Assembly (NCBI GenBank): GCA_021405325.1
Contig: QWII01000037.1
Coordinates: 1 to 64,000 of the forward strand
Direction: 5' to 3'
DNA length: 64,000 nucleotides
Origin: Caldilinea sp. CFX5
GTDB taxonomy: Bacteria; Chloroflexota; Anaerolineae; Caldilineales; Caldilineaceae
Part shown: positions 11,988 to 47,959 of the stretch, piece by piece
Layout of the letters: every line of letters begins with the position of its first letter
How positions within the stretch are numbered: position 1 is the stretch's first letter
Made by a program: the position numbers and the translations under genes
The notes under the pieces: generated by a model
The model's input: the letters and a program-made list of their open reading frames with translations, nothing else
Told to the model about the DNA's origin: nothing
The model's database searches: none

Positions 11988-12085
11988 CAACACTCCTTGG
12001 TTCATTGCCGTCAGTGCGACATCAACACACAACTGTGAGCGCGCAGGCGCTTCCCTTATTGTACCACAACGGGAGCAGCGGATCC

Positions 12086-13786
12086 TTATGGTTCAATACA
12101 TTCTGGCGGTTTGCGGTGATGGACAATCGCATCGGTCGTCAATGCTTGCGCTGCGCCGCTGACAGCGATGGTCAACGCTTTTTGCAGGATGAAGAGGGCA
12201 TCCTGAATGCCGCTTTGCGGTATATTGACAAGCTGTCCACTGCGAGCGTCAAAAACGCAGCCAGCAGGCGCACGTTGAACCTGTTCGGTGACAATCGTGG
12301 GATGATAGCCGGCATTGTGGGCAATGGTGCGCAGTGGTTCTTCCAAAGCGCGACCCAATATGTTGTAAGCGATGGCTTCCTCAGCGCTGGCGGCCGGCAG
12401 TCGCGACAACACTTGTTGGGCTTGGAGCAGCGCTGTGCCGCCACCAGCCACCACGCCACCAGTGAGCGCATGACGCAAGGTCGTCACGGCCCGTAAGGCT
12501 AGTGTCTTGAGCGCCGCGCTGCTGGTGTCGGTGGCATCGGCCACGCGTAAGATGGCGGTCCCGCCGGTCATGCGGCCAAGTCGTTCGCGCAGCATTTGTT
12601 GTTCATGGTCGCCTACCGCACTTTTCAACTGGCCGCGCAACTGGCGGATATGGTGGCGTAACTGGCGCGGGTCGCCTTTGCCGCCAAAGAGGCCAAACAA
12701 ACTTTGGGTGGCCCAGGCGCGACGGGCATACCCTAGGTCGGCGATCTGGAAATCCTGAAAATCGGCAGTAGCCGCCGCATAAAAGACACGCCCGCCGGTC
12801 AAAGCCGCAATATCTTCCATCGCCGCCACCTGATCGGCCTCTTGTACCCGTGGCGTGCGCACCACTAGCGTGCTGACCGTTTTGGCCTGGTTGTTCTGTA
12901 CCAGCAAACCGACAGCGCGATCCGCGATAGATTTGGCAGTAATCACCAACCTGCGCACACCGGCCTTGGCGCACTGCTCCAGCACCGGAATGAGTTGCTC
13001 AGGCTCTTCAATGGCAAGGTCGCTGATCAAGAGCGCGGCGTCTTCAAAGGTGGTCTGTTGGCGGGTGGTATCGGTGACAAAGTGGCGCGAAACCCAGCCG
13101 CTGAGATGCCAGTACGTTCCTTCGATGTATTCCCGTTCCAGCCCCAGGCGATTGCCTTTCTCCACCACGACCAGCCCGTCCGCGCCGACAATGTCGAAAA
13201 TTTCGCCCAACAGCTCGGCCAGCGCGCAGTTTCCCTGTACCAGCCCACAGGCAAAACGGGCAATGGCCGCTTTGCCAACCAGTGGGCGAGCCATATGTTG
13301 CAAACTTTCCTGTACTGCCTGCAAGCCTTTTTCCAGACCGGCGCGCAACAACATGGCGTTGCAACCGCCTTGGGTGATCACCCGCACGCCTTCGTTCAAA
13401 AGCGCCTGGTAGATCACCGCCATTGTCGTCGCCCCGTCGCCAACCTCCTGGTGCATCCGCCATAAGGCATGACGCAGCAGCATCGCCCCCACATCCGCGC
13501 CGCGCGGCGTGATCTGGATAATGCGGCGGGCGATGAGCGCGCCATCATCCAGAATTTCAGGCGCTTCGTTGCCTTTACTGCGGGCCAGGGCCACCAGGCG
13601 CGGCGAAGGGCCTAAGGTGGGTCGGATGGCAGCCATGATGGCGTCAACACCCTGTTGCAGATCCTGGTAGACCTGCGGTTGAGTGACAATGGCGGCTCTG
13701 GGCGACGATCGTTGCGCTGTTTTTGGGGTGCGGAAGCCGGGCAGATTCTGTTTGCCTGTGCTAGAAGGGCTACGGAGATTCGTCAT
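12086..13786 (-). CDS. divergent GroEL/HSP60-family chaperonin paralogue
   Basis: 566 residues with the group I chaperonin layout: equatorial ATP site VGDGATTM (115-122, usual form GDGTTTA, Asp117 kept), an apical domain about 200-380, GGVVAGGGTALLQA late in the protein, and TTDAIV near the end. Departures from housekeeping GroEL: a 35-residue N-terminal extension rich in Ser/Arg, LGPSPR where LGPKGR is usual, and a C-terminus ending in HHRKPPECIEP without a GGM tail. No groES gene is adjacent. It is probably a specialised paralogue, with a housekeeping copy elsewhere. Ring assembly and activity are uncertain. Confidence 0.85.
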   Translation of the reverse strand: MTNLRSPSSTGKQNLPGFRTPKTAQRSSPRAAIVTQPQVYQDLQQGVDAIMAAIRPTLGPSPRLVALARSKGNEAPEILDDGALIARRIIQITPRGADVGAMLLRHALWRMHQEVGDGATTMAVIYQALLNEGVRVITQGGCNAMLLRAGLEKGLQAVQESLQHMARPLVGKAAIARFACGLVQGNCALAELLGEIFDIVGADGLVVVEKGNRLGLEREYIEGTYWHLSGWVSRHFVTDTTRQQTTFEDAALLISDLAIEEPEQLIPVLEQCAKAGVRRLVITAKSIADRAVGLLVQNNQAKTVSTLVVRTPRVQEADQVAAMEDIAALTGGRVFYAAATADFQDFQIADLGYARRAWATQSLFGLFGGKGDPRQLRHHIRQLRGQLKSAVGDHEQQMLRERLGRMTGGTAILRVADATDTSSAALKTLALRAVTTLRHALTGGVVAGGGTALLQAQQVLSRLPAASAEEAIAYNILGRALEEPLRTIAHNAGYHPTIVTEQVQRAPAGCVFDARSGQLVNIPQSGIQDALFILQKALTIAVSGAAQALTTDAIVHHRKPPECIEP

Positions 13787-13826
13787 GCCTCATTCACTCC
13801 TGGAAAAGACGCCCTGATGAATGTGA

Positions 13827-14054
13827 TTATTTTCCAGTTTCAAAAACGGAGCGCGGCAAGCCAGACTGTTTGATGATCCCTAACAAGGTGCCTCTCTTCA
13901 ATTCATTGTAATCTGGCACAGGTACGGTAATTGTTGTCTGACCTGTTTTTTTCTGCATAAAGATGTGGCTGCCTTTCTGCCGAACCTTCGCAAAACCATG
14001 GTCGGCCAAAATTTTGCACACCTCCTGACCGGAAAGCACCCGTAACTTAGGCAC
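13827..14054 (-). CDS. hicA: HicA-family mRNA interferase toxin
   Basis: 75 residues of the HicA/YcfA dsRBD-like fold: LSGQEVCKILADHGF, then catalytic His30 in QKGSHIFM, then TITVPVPDYNELKRGTLLGIIKQ. It would cleave mRNA when free of its antitoxin. The frame starts at a GTG that overlaps the last codons of the HicB gene (stop at 14047-14049), so translation is coupled to the antitoxin. Confidence 0.88.
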   Translation of the reverse strand: MPKLRVLSGQEVCKILADHGFAKVRQKGSHIFMQKKTGQTTITVPVPDYNELKRGTLLGIIKQSGLPRSVFETGK

Positions 14055-42819: not shown

Positions 42820-42824
42820 AGGTA

Positions 42825-42978
42825 GCGTGCGTGGCACTGACCAAGACCGCTTGCTTGACAAGACCAACCGGTGGTCAGTGCCACGCACGCGGGTAGACCG
42901 CGACACCAAGCCGCGTGCGTGGCACTGACCAGAAGTCAGCAAGGTATTGTCAGCGGTCTTGGTCAGTGCCACGCACGC
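42825..42978. repeat. 154-base double-hairpin element, left copy
   Basis: Two successive hairpins whose arms are GCGTGCGTGGCACTGACCA and its complement: 42825-42843/42872-42890 and 42913-42931/42960-42978. A second copy of the same length and orientation lies at 46443-46596. Arms are nearly identical between copies, loops diverged. It begins five bases after the PhyH stop codon. It looks like a small non-autonomous mobile (MITE/REP-like) element. No gene inside. Confidence 0.88.
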
Positions 42979-42997
42979 TCCTATCGGTATGCGACGT

Positions 42998-43178: not shown

Positions 43179-43206
43179 TTCCAGCGATCTACCCGTGAGG
43201 ATAAGT

Positions 43207-45861
43207 ATGACTCCCGATCCGCAAACAACACCAACAAGTAGCGAACCAACCATTGCACCCTCCCACGCCACTGCACCAGCAAGTACGAGCATTGGCGGCA
43301 ACGTCACCACCAATGGCGGTGCTGTGGTGGGGCGCGACCAATACAACTACATCTTTCAACTCGGCCAACTTTACCGCCAGCCCACCGACCCGCTCGACGC
43401 TACCCAGCTGGCGGCGCAGATCACTGAATACCTGACCTGGCTGGAAGAGAGCACGCGCACCATTGAACTGCGTGGCATTTCGGCGCGCGACACACGGGTC
43501 TCGCTGCCGTTGGCTGAGATCTTTGTTCCGCTGCGGGCTGAAGTGACGGATCAACGTCGCCACGGCGAAGAACGGCAAATTGACTTGGATCAAGTGCTGA
43601 CTGTAGGCGAACGGCTGGCGGTCATTGGCGGCCCGGGGTCGGGCAAAAGCACCGTCTTGCAATACATTGCCTGGGTTCTGGCAACCGCTTTGCTTGACAA
43701 CGATGGTTCTTGGGCGGAACAAAAGTTGGGGTTGAGGCTCGCCGCCGACAACCCGCTGCCGCCGCTCCCTCTCTATCTGCCCTTGAGCGCCTATGCCCGC
43801 CTGCGCTTTCGCCCCAGCCAGGAGAACGACGCGCTCACCTTCCCTGACTTTATTCAGCGCTATTTGCGCCAGAGCCATTGCAACATTGGGGGGCTGCCAC
43901 CAGACTTCTTTGCGCGTCTCCTCCAGAGCGGACGGAGCATCATTCTCCTCCTCGACGGTCTGGACGAGGTGGCAGATGAAAAACAGCGCGAGATTGTCAC
44001 CCAAACCATTGAGCGGCTGGTCGCCGGTCGCAAACAGATTCGGACTGTCGTCACCTGCCGTTCGGTTGCCTACAAGGGGCAGGCGATGTTGACCCGCGAT
44101 TTCCGCCAGGTCACCGTCCAACCGCTGGATCGGGCGCATGTCAAACGGCTGGTGCAACAAGCCTACGGCGCCGTTTACAGCGCCAACCAGGCCGAACAGG
44201 CAGCGCGCACAACCGAATTGCTGGCCGGCATCGACCGCTTGGAAGGCGAACATGCCCGCCGCCAGCGCGACCGCAAATCGCACTTGATCAACAGCCCGTT
44301 GCTGGTGCGTATGTTGCTGATCGTCCATCTCAACGACCGCAAGTTACCCCAACACCGCGCTGATCTTTACCGCCGCTTTGTCGAGACCATTCTCAATTCC
44401 GAACATGTGTGGGACCGGGAAGTGGCGCACGAGTTGAGCGGCCTGCGTGGCAACAACCTCGCCTTGATGAGCCATCTGGCCTTTGCCATGCACCGCAAAG
44501 GCGAAGCGCAAGGGCGTGAGGTTGAACTGGAAACGCTGCGGGCGTTGTTGGCGCCCGATTACGTGGCGGAGACGCCGGCCTTTTTACAGTTGATCCATCT
44601 GCGTGGCACATTGGTTGAAGAACGCGACGGTTTTTACCGTTTTCTCCACCTCGCCTTCCAGGAATATCTGGCCGCCCGCTATCTGGCGGTGGAGTATTGG
44701 CGCAATACAGATATGATACAAACCGTTGACTTCGTAGCCCAGCAGGCGCCAAACAGTTGGTGGCGTGAGGTGGCGACCTTGTTGCCCGGCTATCTGCGCG
44801 AAGAGTCGCCGCTCAATGCCAAACGAGTGATCAGCGCCCTAGCGGCGCTGCCGGAATGGCAAGCGGTGGTCGCTACCTGGTCGCCCAATGTGCAACTGGC
44901 TGCTGCAGAAATCGCCGCTACCGCAACGCTGGAATGGGTTCATGACGATGAAGCTTTACGCCAGGCGTTGGTGGAGCGGTTGATGCATTTTTTTAAGACC
45001 CCGTCCCTGCTCAACCAAACCCAACCCCGGCTGCGGGCGTTGGCCGGTCGCGCCTTGGCCGCGTTGGGCGATCCCCGTTTCCGCGCCGATGCTTGGTTTC
45101 TACCCGATGACTCCATGTTAGGCTTTGTCGAAATGTCCGCTGGAACATTTGTTATGGGGGAAGATGAAGAAGCGCATAAAGTCACCCTGCCCACTTTCTA
45201 CATCGCCCGCTACCCTGTGACGGTCGCCCAGTTTCGCGCCTTTGTAGAAGCAACGGGTGAGCAACCCAGGTGGGCCGACCTAACTGAGCCAGACAACCAC
45301 CCGGTGCGCAATGTCACCTGGTTTGAGGCGACGCGCTATTGCCAATGGTTGACCGGGCGGTTGCGCGCTTGGGCCAAAACACCGGCGCCACTGGCTGAAA
45401 AGTTGGCGCAGGGCTGGCAGGTCATGTTGCCCAGCGAGGCAGAATGGGAGAGAGCCACACGCGGCAGCAAGGGGCGACATTATCCGTGGGGCGATGAGAA
45501 AGTCGACCCCAACCGGGCTAACTACAAAGAAACCGGCACCGGAACGACCAGCGCCGTAGGCTGTTTCCCCGCCGGTGCCACGCCCGAAGGGGTCGAAGAC
45601 CTTAGCGGCAATGTGTGGGAATGGACAAGAAGCCGTTACATGGCGTATCCTTATCCCAGCGATGAGCAAGAGCGCAGCAAACGGGAGTGGGTTCAGGTCG
45701 AGGGGGTCAAGACCAGCAACAAGTTTGTACTACGCGGCGGATCATTTTACGATAATGTAAGTAATATGCGTGCGCCGCGGCGTGACCTCGGCCTCGCTGA
45801 CGGCATCAGCGTCAGCTACGGTATTCGATTGGTGGTGGGCGGTGCTGCCCCTGTCAGTTGA
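43207..45861 (+). CDS. NACHT-type NTPase with C-terminal FGE/C-type-lectin-like domain; putative DGR target
   Basis: 884 residues; the ATG at 43207 follows GAGG. Order: a low-complexity N-terminus; a GGNVTTNGGAVVGRDQ motif (30-45) common in bacterial STAND/conflict proteins; NACHT NTPase with Walker A GGPGSGKST (141-149) and Walker B IILLLDGLDEV (about 245-255); helical region to about 630; formylglycine-generating-enzyme-like fold (636-880: GTFVMGEDEEAHKVTLPTFY, WFEATRYCQWL, LPSEAEWERATRG, LSGNVWEW, LRGGSF). The catalytic Cys pair of true FGEs is absent, so it is a binding domain. Its last part (855-882) matches the downstream A-rich repeat and would vary at residues 861-863, 866 and 868-870. 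Likely an NLR-like sensor in defence or self-recognition; that role is inference. Confidence 0.88.
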   Translation: MTPDPQTTPTSSEPTIAPSHATAPASTSIGGNVTTNGGAVVGRDQYNYIFQLGQLYRQPTDPLDATQLAAQITEYLTWLEESTRTIELRGISARDTRVSLPLAEIFVPLRAEVTDQRRHGEERQIDLDQVLTVGERLAVIGGPGSGKSTVLQYIAWVLATALLDNDGSWAEQKLGLRLAADNPLPPLPLYLPLSAYARLRFRPSQENDALTFPDFIQRYLRQSHCNIGGLPPDFFARLLQSGRSIILLLDGLDEVADEKQREIVTQTIERLVAGRKQIRTVVTCRSVAYKGQAMLTRDFRQVTVQPLDRAHVKRLVQQAYGAVYSANQAEQAARTTELLAGIDRLEGEHARRQRDRKSHLINSPLLVRMLLIVHLNDRKLPQHRADLYRRFVETILNSEHVWDREVAHELSGLRGNNLALMSHLAFAMHRKGEAQGREVELETLRALLAPDYVAETPAFLQLIHLRGTLVEERDGFYRFLHLAFQEYLAARYLAVEYWRNTDMIQTVDFVAQQAPNSWWREVATLLPGYLREESPLNAKRVISALAALPEWQAVVATWSPNVQLAAAEIAATATLEWVHDDEALRQALVERLMHFFKTPSLLNQTQPRLRALAGRALAALGDPRFRADAWFLPDDSMLGFVEMSAGTFVMGEDEEAHKVTLPTFYIARYPVTVAQFRAFVEATGEQPRWADLTEPDNHPVRNVTWFEATRYCQWLTGRLRAWAKTPAPLAEKLAQGWQVMLPSEAEWERATRGSKGRHYPWGDEKVDPNRANYKETGTGTTSAVGCFPAGATPEGVEDLSGNVWEWTRSRYMAYPYPSDEQERSKREWVQVEGVKTSNKFVLRGGSFYDNVSNMRAPRRDLGLADGISVSYGIRLVVGGAAPVS
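45768..45851 (+). repeat. putative DGR variable repeat (VR)
   Basis: 84 bases at the 3' end of the NACHT-FGE gene aligning without gaps to 46132-46215 (offset 364). There are 13 differences: ten at bases that are A in the downstream copy (A to G seven times, A to T three times), and three non-A differences grouped at 45817, 45823 and 45828. The last 23 bases are identical and G/C/T only. It encodes the C-type-lectin-like ligand-binding edge. Confidence 0.85.
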
Positions 45862-46007
45862 ACCTCTGAATCTCTGGCGCATCTGAACTATGAGCTGGCT
45901 CTGTTACTCTGTCTCTCTGGTTTTCAACCTAACCACAAAGTGGCGGTCAAGGCGTGATCTGCCCAATACCGCCGAGGGCGGTCGAATTTTTGGAAAATCA
46001 TCCCCTT

Positions 46008-46066
46008 CGCTCGGAGCCGGTCCGTGACCGGCGACCCGACCGCCGGTCACGGACCGGCTCCGAGCG
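46008..46066. repeat. 26-base perfect hairpin between VR and TR
   Basis: Arms 46008-46033 and 46041-46066, loop ACCCGAC. Core GCCGGTCCGTGACCGGCG. The hairpin at 58615-58680 has the same core with two compensating changes (GCCAGTCCGTGACTGGCG). Confidence 0.88.
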
Positions 46067-46131
46067 GGGAACTTACTCCTTTGGCAATCCCGGTTGTCCT
46101 GGGCAGCCGTTATTGCAGGGGCTGGTTGATA

Positions 46132-46215
46132 GCGTGCGCCGCGGCGTGACCACAACCACGCTGACAACATCAACAACAACGACGGTTTTCGGTTGGTGGT
46201 GGGCGGTGCTGCCCC
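46132..46215 (+). repeat. putative DGR template repeat (TR)
   Basis: Non-coding copy of the target gene's 3' segment, rich in AAC/CAC codons (reading D-H-N-H-A-D-N-I-N-N-N-D-G-F-R-L). Sixteen adenines, of which ten are changed in the variable repeat, against three changes in 68 other bases. From 46184 to 46215 there is no adenine, as expected for the region where mutagenic homing initiates. Same strand and orientation as the variable repeat, 280 bases after it. No reverse transcriptase gene follows. Confidence 0.82.
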
Positions 46216-46294
46216 ACGGCGTTCACCCCATGCGGTCTCTGCATCGCTTGGGCCAGAAATCTACGTCGGCTACGGCTTGCGCAGCGCGGATTGA
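46216..46294 (+). pseudogene. possible remnant of another FGE/C-type-lectin tail
   Basis: The frame that reads through the template repeat stays open to a TGA at 46292-46294 and ends SLGPEIYVGYGLRSAD. This parallels the target's DLGLADGISVSYGIRL: atc-tac-gtc-ggc-tac-ggc against atc-agc-gtc-agc-tac-ggt. It could be a fragment of a second diversified gene. Short length keeps this tentative. Confidence 0.4.
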
Positions 46295-46442
46295 TCGCCG
46301 GCGCAACCGGTTCCTGGCCGCCCCCTCCCAACCTCCCCCAGACTAGGGGAGGAGCAGATGGCGGTGGGCAAAGATAGAACGGGGCGCCACCCTACCCGTA
46401 TCCGGTCTACGGCCGGGCTGGTGGCGCTCCACCCGCTTGCCC

Positions 46443-46596
46443 GCGTGCGTGGCACTGACCAAGATCGTTCTGTTGACAGAGCCAACTGGTGGTCAGTGCC
46501 GCGCACGCGGTTGCGTCCTAAGTCCTACCCGCGTGCGCGGCACTGACCAGTGAACGACAGGTTATTGCAAACGGTCTTGGTCAGTGCCACGCACGC
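46443..46596. repeat. 154-base double-hairpin element, right copy
   Basis: Hairpin arms at 46443-46461/46490-46508 and 46531-46549/46578-46596, the same words as the left copy at 42825-42978 with single A/G changes (GTGCCGCGCACGC) and diverged loops. Same orientation as the left copy; together they bracket the NACHT-FGE gene and template repeat. Confidence 0.88.
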
Positions 46597-46769
46597 TACG
46601 CCCCATCCGCTGCGCCTAAAGCCGCTGTAACCTTTCGGGGTAATGCAATCGACTGTAATACCTGTTCGCCGCTTTTCAAACCTTTGCCTGGTTATGGTAT
46701 CCTACGCTGTATATTTCTTTGGTTACAATGGTCGCTGGTGCTTTCAAGTTCGCGCACAGAGGTATAAAG

Positions 46770-47087
46770 ATGTCGGTACTGGTTGAAATCAAACTAGCGT
46801 TGGCGGAAGAGATTCTCCGTCAATTGCATGAACATTCTCTCCGCCGGGGAGTCAGCGAGGACATCGTGGTTGAACAAGCATTGGGATTGCTTTTTGCCCA
46901 GGATGAACCATCGCCGCAAAGCGACTACTGGTTCGCGGCCTCAGCCATGCGCGCGGATTGGGACGCGATGCCCGAAGATGAAGCGGAGTTTTCAACTTCT
47001 GCAATCAAGTGCGGCAAGTTCGGCTTTACAAAAGAAATCCCTGGCGCGGGGATGCGGTTGTGTTTTATATCAGGCGGCACATGTTGA
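46770..47087 (+). CDS. ribbon-helix-helix antitoxin-like protein with a replaced C-terminus
   Basis: 105 residues from the ATG at 46770, behind AGAGG. The first 60 residues resemble small antitoxin/DNA-binding proteins (MSVLVEIKLALAEEILRQL, RGVSEDIVVEQALGLLFAQ, then a YWFAASAMRADWDAMPED tail). Beyond about residue 72 the frame runs antisense through the TumE-like gene, so the natural 3' end appears to have been lost by a rearrangement near 46980. Likely a partial gene; no cognate toxin is adjacent on this strand. Confidence 0.6.
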   Translation: MSVLVEIKLALAEEILRQLHEHSLRRGVSEDIVVEQALGLLFAQDEPSPQSDYWFAASAMRADWDAMPEDEAEFSTSAIKCGKFGFTKEIPGAGMRLCFISGGTC

Positions 47088-47392
47088 TGGTGGGGATGAG
47101 TGCTTTGCAAGGCCGGAATATGGGGATGGGGCATGGGGTCATACCACCACAACTGCTGGTCGTGGAGATACACTTCATAGGAATACTTGAGAATACGCTG
47201 TTGGAGAAAATCAATCTGCTCAAAGACACGCAAGGTATGGCCGGAATGAAACTTGATCTCGCCCCGCACCATGCCAACGGTTTGACCAAGGGTGTAGACT
47301 GACAGCGTATGCGTCTCAACGGTTGGCCGCACAGTCAGTAAATCATAAATGAACTGCGAATAAGCCAAATGCGAGTCAAGTGGTGACGCCAT
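46925..47392 (-). CDS. TumE-family toxin-like protein
   Basis: 155 residues. Matches the TumE/DUF6516-type toxin pattern: RPTVETHTLSVYTLGQTVGMV, GEIKFHSGHTLRVFEQIDF, YSYEVYLHDQQLWWYDPMPH, then STHPHHQHVPPDIK. Homologues end soon after PNLPHLIAEVE, so the last 25-30 residues here are probably read-through across the junction with the convergent gene. Encoded 28 bases after its antitoxin gene. Confidence 0.78.
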   Translation of the reverse strand: MASPLDSHLAYSQFIYDLLTVRPTVETHTLSVYTLGQTVGMVRGEIKFHSGHTLRVFEQIDFLQQRILKYSYEVYLHDQQLWWYDPMPHPHIPALQSTHPHHQHVPPDIKHNRIPAPGISFVKPNLPHLIAEVENSASSSGIASQSARMAEAANQ

Positions 47393-47420: not shown

Positions 47421-47726
47421 TTAAGCAGGAACTGGTAATTGATCGACATGTAAATCCGCCAGTGACGCTGGACCAGCAATTGTCTGTAGACGGTCAGCAA
47501 TCACCTGCATATAGCGTTGCCGCCGATATTGATACACCTCCCACCAGCCGGACCATTCCAGGTAGGTCTGGATTTCTGCCGGATCTTCATCCCGCAATTG
47601 CCCCTGCTCGTAAAGCTGATAGAAAGTCTCAGAGAGCAGACCATATTTTTGTTCAAACCAGCGCAATTCCGTCTCTGCCAGGTAGATTTCCCGCAGTAGT
47701 AGTTCGGCCGTAAGGGTTGTTTTCAT
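47421..47726 (-). CDS. TumA-like antitoxin
   Basis: 101 residues from the ATG at 47726 (MKTTLTAELLLREIYLAETE); the frame is open to 47837 but the promoter lies inside that part. A helical protein, ELRWFEQKYGLLSETFYQL, ending in DPAEIQTYLEWSGWWEVYQY, a form seen in antitoxins partnered with TumE-like toxins. First gene of the pair. The pairing is by position and pattern. Confidence 0.72.
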   Translation of the reverse strand: MKTTLTAELLLREIYLAETELRWFEQKYGLLSETFYQLYEQGQLRDEDPAEIQTYLEWSGWWEVYQYRRQRYMQVIADRLQTIAGPASLADLHVDQLPVPA

Positions 47727-47769
47727 CGGTTGCACCTTCTGACTATATCGCATCGCCATCACTAGCGAT

Positions 47770-47798
47770 AGTATACTGGAAACGGCAACTTTGGACAA
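47770..47798 (-). promoter_or_regulatory. sigma-70-type promoter of the TumA/TumE-like pair
   Basis: Minus strand: -35 TTGTCC (47793-47798), 17-base spacer, -10 TATACT (47770-47775). It lies 44 bases before the antitoxin start. Confidence 0.65.
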
Positions 47799-47959
47799 CT
47801 CCCCTGTCACCAAAACCCTGTTTGTCAAAATCACCACTCAAGTCTATACTACCCATTAACCGGCAACCAACCTTGCAGTTGCCGGCTCGCCCAGCTTCTT
47901 GGCCCCAGGGGTAGCAACGTGGAAATCATCGAGTTCACCAGAAAGACAGGCAAAGCAAC

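What the first reader, a model, noticed from the sequence alone, without database searches (positions are those of the whole stretch)
45768..46215. Template/variable repeat pair of a diversity-generating retroelement
Two 84-base segments 364 bases apart align without gaps. Of 13 differences, ten fall on the 16 adenines of the downstream copy and three on its other 68 bases; a simple binomial by hand gives about 1e-5 for so many A-sites. All A-site changes are to G or T. The downstream copy has AAC-rich codons and an A-free 3' end. The three non-A changes cluster near that 3' end, as between IMH and IMH* in known DGRs. The upstream copy ends a gene with an FGE/C-type-lectin-like domain, the classic DGR target fold.
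Basis: partly seen in the sequence, partly recalled or inferred. Interest (0 to 1): 0.96.

Follow-up and report, generated by a model that had tools for sequence, protein, structure and literature searches.

The report
Hypermutation cassette lacking its enzyme
An immune-sensor-like bacterial gene lies next to its own mutation template, a genuine piece of a known hypermutation system (a diversity-generating retroelement), but the enzyme that would copy the template is not nearby and must act from elsewhere in the genome or have been lost.

Summary
VR 45768-45851 and TR 46132-46215 align without gaps; 10 of 13 differences fall on the TR's 16 adenines (Fisher 6.6e-7). It is a genuine DGR template/target pair. 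The target is an 888-aa NACHT-FGE protein. In an alignment of it with seven relatives, TR-adenine codons are 17% identical between pairs, other VR codons 70%. The template is a real TR-RNA gene: its 3' part (46212-46432) matches, at 133.7 bits and E 2.5e-31, a covariance model built without it from six RT-linked loci. A CTCTG array follows the VR, as after 40 of 45 VRs examined. The enzyme is missing: no DGR RT or Avd was found in the 64 kb. So it is an RT-less cassette, served in trans or orphaned; no genome is held to decide. Three non-A differences, and A-to-T where 32 of 32 comparator pairs have A-to-C, tilt towards orphaned. NACHT-CLec DGR targets and RT-less loci are published (PMC10907252). 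The conserved TR-RNA element and the CTCTG array were not seen in my literature searches.

The parts
43195..45861 (+). Target gene, 888 aa (884 aa from the ATG at 43207), NACHT (aa 219-322) and C-terminal FGE-sulfatase domain (aa 644-880)
   Evidence: ORF; Pfam; 631 homologues at E<=1e-3 in a candidate-capped search
45768..45851 (+). Variable repeat (VR), last coding bases of the target
   Evidence: hypervariable codons in relatives
45864..45919 (+). CTCTG-repeat array after the VR (six TCTG; densest TCTG cluster of the window)
45968..45982 (.). Weak 6-bp GC hairpin (ACCGCC-GAG-GGCGGT), possible post-VR stem-loop
   Evidence: no stem of 6 bp or more within 130 nt in the formal test
46008..46066 (.). 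Perfect inverted repeat, 26-nt arms, 7-nt loop, between VR and TR; repeat-like, role unknown
46111..46131 (+). TR leader, similar to the TR leader of L091/L135
   Evidence: 46111-46202 is 75% identical to L091
46132..46215 (+). Template repeat (TR)
46212..46432 (+). Conserved folded 3' element of the TR-RNA (Sp-like), with an 11-bp stem 46381-46391 / 46420-46430
42822..42979 (.). Palindromic repeat array upstream of the target
46441..46599 (.). Second copy of the palindromic repeat array, downstream of the TR-RNA

Best explanation
A DGR target-plus-template cassette without its own enzyme. SHOWN: the target is a NACHT-FGE protein whose last codons form a VR; 364 bp downstream lies a TR-RNA gene (leader, TR, conserved folded 3' element); the differences between the copies are adenine-specific; no RT or Avd was found in the 64 kb. 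INFERRED: an RT-Avd pair encoded elsewhere in the genome, or formerly beside the cassette, bound the folded 3' element, copied the TR with errors at adenines, and the cDNA replaced the VR, with the CTCTG array and a hairpin marking the landing site. The product would be an NLR-like intracellular sensor whose ligand-binding face is varied. Whether the cassette still fires is open; I lean slightly to orphaned or slow over currently active.
For: A-specific TR/VR differences. Hypervariable TR-adenine codons in the target family. Covariance-model match 133.7 bits, E 2.5e-31, with the window left out of the model. Covarying fold. 45 of 50 matches of the RNA model with upstream sequence have an AAC/AAT-rich template directly upstream, control 4.2%. 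CTCTG array. TR end CCCACGGC shared with RT-bearing loci. No RT or Avd in the window.
Against: Three non-A differences in the repeat; VR has T where 32 of 32 comparator pairs have C; no GC hairpin within 130 nt of the VR, as in 7 of 31 loci. No RT of this organism has been seen, so the enzymatic step rests on relatives. The covariation count includes sequences from which the structure was derived.
Confidence: 0.9

Rival explanations
1. Alive: the cassette is diversified today in trans by an RT-Avd at another locus.
For: TR-RNA fold, CTCTG array and reading frame are intact. G048 has an RT-poor template with two VRs on one contig and an intact RT on another; G081 has a decayed RT by its template and longer RTs elsewhere. 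Trans action is argued for Thiohalocapsa DGR 4 and 5 (PMC10907252, section read).
Against: Three non-A differences and T at the terminal position; in the published trans cases the VR matches the TR at all non-A sites. No RT known for this organism.
Confidence: 0.4
2. Relict or stalled: RT and Avd were lost and TR and VR now drift.
For: Three non-A differences; T at a position that is C in 32 of 32 comparator pairs; GFR changed to GIR in the VR; repeat arrays around the cassette; G264, on one 4.67-Mb contig, keeps a template/VR pair with only RT fragments in the genome.
Against: The TR-RNA element is not decayed (133.7 bits against 159.3-190.5 for the six training loci). RT-bearing L145 also has three non-A differences. 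No RT remnant was found in the window.
Confidence: 0.55
3. Ordinary decayed duplicate of the gene end.
For: The copy is non-coding and 85% identical to the gene end.
Against: A-specific asymmetry; homology to the gene stops at both TR ends, and the flanks match TR leaders and TR 3' RNAs of other DGRs.
Confidence: 0.02

Closest known systems
Clade-5 DGRs that diversify STAND/NACHT-CLec putative antigen sensors (Thiohalocapsa PB-PSB1 DGR 3 and 6; Dore et al. 2024, PMC10907252)
   Same: NACHT plus C-terminal FGE/CLec target with the VR at its end; loci without RT, MITE-like repeats near them, and trans action are described there.
   Different: The window holds a TR next to its target but no RT within 64 kb, and its VR differs from the TR at three non-A sites. 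RT clade cannot be tested without an RT.
BPP-1 DGR of Bordetella phage (avd-TR-Sp-brt; PMC12875486 and PMC3240598, passages)
   Same: TR followed by a folded RNA segment; adenine-specific VR; landing features 3' of the VR.
   Different: No brt or avd in the window; the conserved RNA has a fold compared here only within Chloroflexota and a few others; a CTCTG array stands between VR and any hairpin.
RT-poor template cassettes in related genomes (L135 in G048, L180 in G032, L182 in G264, L080 in G408)
   Same: VR and TR 265-876 bp apart, TR-RNA 3' element, no intact RT beside them.
   Different: Non-A differences are 0 in L135 (71-nt repeat), 0 in L182 and L080, 8 of 20 in L180; the window has 3 of 13. 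The L180 target ORF shows only FGE in Pfam. L135 and L182 keep RT fragments.

Membership tests
Diversity-generating retroelement (complete) | TR/VR pair differing at template adenines | tested here: met
   10 of 13 differences on 16 TR adenines, P 6.6e-7
Diversity-generating retroelement (complete) | DGR-type reverse transcriptase at the locus | tested here: not met
   No motif ORF; best tblastn E 0.064 with 15 usable RT ORFs; none with seven RTs at E<=1e-8
Diversity-generating retroelement (complete) | Avd or other accessory protein | tested here: not met
   Avd-like ORF of L141: no match in the window at E<=1; its L140 counterpart is bAvd. Other accessory families were not searched
Diversity-generating retroelement (complete) | Target with VR in a C-type-lectin-like fold at the C terminus | tested here: met
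   FGE-sulfatase aa 644-880; VR codons from aa 855
Diversity-generating retroelement (complete) | Folded RNA 3' of the TR (Sp) | tested here: met
   E 2.5e-31 to a model from six RT-linked loci; equivalence to BPP-1 Sp is by position only
Diversity-generating retroelement (complete) | IMH/IMH* distinction and post-VR stem-loop | tested here: inconclusive
   Terminal A faces T, not C as in 32 of 32 comparators; only a weak hairpin at 116 nt
Diversity-generating retroelement (complete) | Mutagenic retrohoming activity | not testable with these tools
   Needs reads or an experiment
DGR-diversified NACHT/STAND sensors (Dore et al. 2024) | NACHT or STAND NTPase fused to a VR-bearing FGE/CLec domain | tested here: met
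DGR-diversified NACHT/STAND sensors (Dore et al. 2024) | Clade 5 RT, multicellular host, defence function | not testable with these tools
   No RT in the window; host unnamed; function untested in the paper too (abstract)

The most novel reading that the evidence does not exclude
The window is one of a widespread class of RT-less DGR satellites: cassettes of a sensor gene, its landing site (CTCTG array and hairpin) and its own template RNA with a conserved RT-docking fold, diversified in trans by an RT-Avd encoded elsewhere and spread as units bracketed by palindromic repeats. Surveys that start from an RT gene do not see them. One RT would then serve several private templates, giving a cell a modular repertoire of variable immune-like receptors.
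Probability: 0.3. Interest if true: 0.78.

Novelty: new variant of a known kind. Interest (0 to 1): 0.56.

Why it matters
DGRs are a known prokaryotic route to targeted hypermutation, and NACHT-CLec targets are candidate antigen sensors (PMC10907252). If target-plus-template cassettes work without a linked RT, censuses anchored on RT genes undercount DGR targets; Roux et al. state that remote targets escape their search (PMC8144416, passages). The covariance model of the TR-RNA 3' element and the CTCTG array give two handles that do not need an RT, and a testable idea of how RT-Avd tells its template RNA and its landing site from the rest of the genome.

Tried and rejected
Ordinary gene-end duplication: rejected. 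The hairpin 46008-46066 as the BPP-1-type post-VR stem-loop: not adopted; it starts 157 nt after the VR and has 26-nt arms, while phage DGRs have 7-10 bp stems 4-34 bp from the VR (PMC3240598, passages). Rfam: nothing at gathering threshold in the window; at E<=1 in 45855-46620 there were 17 matches, 15 of them microRNA models, each below its cut-off; five comparator loci gave only a tRNA. Phage records similar to 45860-46240: none. Search for a close orthologue: best identity 46% in 396 genomes of the class, so no sister strain was available. Pattern search for the flanking repeat: 3 of 396 genomes, one match each. PADLOC on the target: only weak matches. Pairing between an Sp motif and the post-VR TCTGG repeats was looked at by eye and dropped. 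No structure prediction was run.

Rows dropped before counts. One search, the first TR/VR scan, missed the window's own pair because of a 40-base gap rule; I loosened it to 60. One search's 32 comparator pairs (29 loci) are those for which one search found a VR (at most 6 non-A mismatches over up to 78 nt); of 49 RNA matches examined there, 30 loci including the window had one and 19 had none in the slice held. L180 and L181 were not in that count; their pairs show A/C by eye. Ten further pairs were only printed: seven end A/C, three (L031, L059, L038) do not. In one search five of 45 VRs had fewer than two TCTG (L017 twice, L026, L038, L040); the 34 TR rows include three templates counted twice. 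One search took one VR per locus, 31 loci; the seven without a hairpin are the window, L182, L185, L189, L192, L135, L017. One search gave 54 matches, 52 after removing two loci held twice; six of them are the model's training sequences, and so are six of the 42. The five of 50 without a template upstream are L183, L191, L212, L138, L139; L194 and L211 had no upstream sequence. In one search, 17 RT ORFs were made, two of them one residue long and useless.

Full report
1. The observation. A scan of the window and L001-L100 tested 632 repeat pairs and flagged A-bias in 26, T in 12, G in 1, C in 0. In the VR frame the downstream copy reads RAPRRDHNHADNINNNDGFRLVVGGAAP and the gene RAPRRDLGLADGISVSYGIRLVVGGAAP.

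2. The target. The 888-aa protein carries NACHT and FGE-sulfatase domains and has 631 relatives at E<=1e-3 among the 7996 candidates scored. In an alignment of it with seven relatives (54-84% identical to it), codons that hold a TR adenine are 17% identical between pairs, other VR codons 70%, the rest of the FGE domain 68%, a NACHT stretch 66%. This is the mark of targeted diversification in the family, independent of the window's two copies. Several relatives are about 990 aa and carry an extra N-terminal stretch, which one source names XRE-family HTH; the window's match to P0002 begins at residue 102 of P0002.

3. The template is a real TR-RNA gene. Its leader and TR match L091/L135 (75% over 92 nt) and the sequence 3' of the TR matches the TR-downstream region of RT-bearing loci (87% over 70 nt in L105/L141, 72% over 181 nt in L104/L140). 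In the six loci used for the model the RT lies upstream of the TR; in L140 and L141 an ORF lies between them, bAvd in L140, and the L141 RT is RVT_1 / phrog_1423. In other loci, such as L192 and L144, the RT is downstream. An alignment of seven sequences, window included, gives 46 pairs, 16 with a change on both sides and 94.3% of cells paired; 0 of 500 shuffles reach this and sliding by 1-3 columns drops pairing to 33-48% (the structure was derived from these sequences, which favours it). The stronger test leaves the window out: a covariance model from the six RT-linked sequences finds it at 133.7 bits, E 2.5e-31. The fold pairs the TR's last bases (46217-46224) with a site about 70 nt downstream and ends in an 11-bp stem, 46381-46391 with 46420-46430.

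4. How general this RNA is. In 396 genomes of the class the model has 42 matches in 37 genomes at E<=1e-3, six of them its training sequences. In 75 fetched sources it has 54 matches, 52 distinct. Of 50 with upstream sequence, 45 have an AAC/AAT-rich template directly upstream, against 4.2% of 5000 random positions. So the element is the 3' part of a TR-RNA. In BPP-1 the spacer at this place folds, recruits bRT-Avd and supplies the priming adenine (PMC12875486, passages); that this one does the same is inference.

5. The landing site. After the VR, 40 of 45 VRs have at least two TCTG within 90 nt (mean 4.8; random stretches 0.34, 5% with two; after 34 TR rows mean 0.38 and none with two). The window has six, 45865-45919, its densest cluster on either strand. 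A GC-rich hairpin within 130 nt follows in 24 of 31 loci, 3.2 expected from block shuffles; the window is one of the seven without and has only a 6-bp hairpin at 45968-45982. The last template adenine faces C in 32 of 32 comparator pairs and T in the window.

6. The missing enzyme. No RT-motif ORF, no tblastn match better than E 0.064 with 15 usable RT ORFs, none with seven RTs at E<=1e-8, no Avd match, over 46.2 kb upstream and 17.6 kb downstream of the TR-RNA. The rest of the genome is not held. Of the 52 TR-RNA matches, 28 have an RT match of at least 280 aa within 4 kb; 8, the window among them, have none with at least 3 kb on both sides; 8 have only a fragment; 7 have short flanks; 1 is cut by a contig end. 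Many sources are draft contigs and a few matches lack a template, so the RT-less numbers are upper bounds. Of 17 genomes searched for an RT, 12 had some match at E<=1e-6. G048 has an intact RT on another contig than its RT-poor template; G081 has a decayed piece at its template and longer RTs elsewhere; G264, on one 4.67-Mb contig, has two short fragments only; G032, G250, G133, G365 and G408 had none.

7. Alive or relict. For alive: template RNA, array and reading frame are intact. For relict: three non-A differences, T at the terminal position, GFR changed to GIR, repeats around the cassette. In the repeat core, RT-bearing pairs mostly had 0 or 1 non-A differences, but L216 had 2 and both L145 pairs 3, so the count alone does not decide. 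I put relict or slow at 0.55 and active in trans at 0.4.

8. Flanking repeats. Two arrays of about 158 bp, 42822-42979 and 46441-46599, built from GCGTGCGTGGCACTGACCA-like units, lie on either side of target plus TR-RNA and were found nowhere else in the window; their outer ends are 33-nt inverted repeats, 97% complementary. Dore et al. describe MITE-like arrays that replaced RTs. A mobile, bracketed cassette is possible but untested: I saw no target-site duplication in the flanks printed, and copy number in the genome is unknown.

9. Place among known things. NACHT/STAND-CLec targets of clade 5 DGRs, RT-less loci and trans action are published (PMC10907252: abstract and outline, section 4, passages; Kaur et al. 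PMC7159879 seen in a listing only). As a complete DGR the locus fails a defining test (RT), so it is filed as an RT-less DGR cassette. For the TR-RNA family and the CTCTG array I saw no report in the listings of searches (open-licence PMC papers only) or in the passages of the five papers opened; Rfam had no match at gathering threshold. Of the three papers holding CTCTG I opened one, PMC3091744, where it is a PCR primer. Subscription papers and supplements were not seen.

10. Host. The nearest TR-RNAs come from genomes of the order of G002, reached through a locus titled Litorilinea aerophila; G004 came through one titled Caldilineaceae. A Caldilineales-like Chloroflexota host is inferred, not shown.

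Noticed in passing
window 42822-42979 and 46441-46599: Two similar arrays of palindromic repeats bracket the target and TR-RNA and occur nowhere else in the 64 kb; possibly MITE- or REP-like.
   Followed up: partly
window 45864-45919, and 3' of VRs in most related loci: Tandem CTCTG repeats directly after the VR, absent after TRs; a possible cis element of these DGR targets.
   Followed up: partly
window 43195-43213: The target lacks about 100 N-terminal residues present in close relatives of about 990 aa, named XRE-family HTH by one source; no remnant was found by tblastn.
   Followed up: partly
window 46925-47392 and 47421-47837, minus strand: TumE toxin-like ORF (Pfam 2.5e-11) with a neighbour ORF weakly matching PADLOC PDC-M44A: a likely toxin-antitoxin pair beside the cassette.
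   Followed up: no
G264:C1:368279-369233 (L182): Single 4.67-Mb contig with a TR/VR pair whose 17 compared differences are all on A, but only two short RT fragments in the genome: looks like a recent loss.
   Followed up: partly
L135 (G048:C20) 12078-13968: One template with two VRs, an RT fragment between them, and the only long RT of the genome on another contig.
   Followed up: partly
L183 4640-4890: The TR-RNA 3' element follows a sequence that reads like a mutated VR rather than a template.
   Followed up: no
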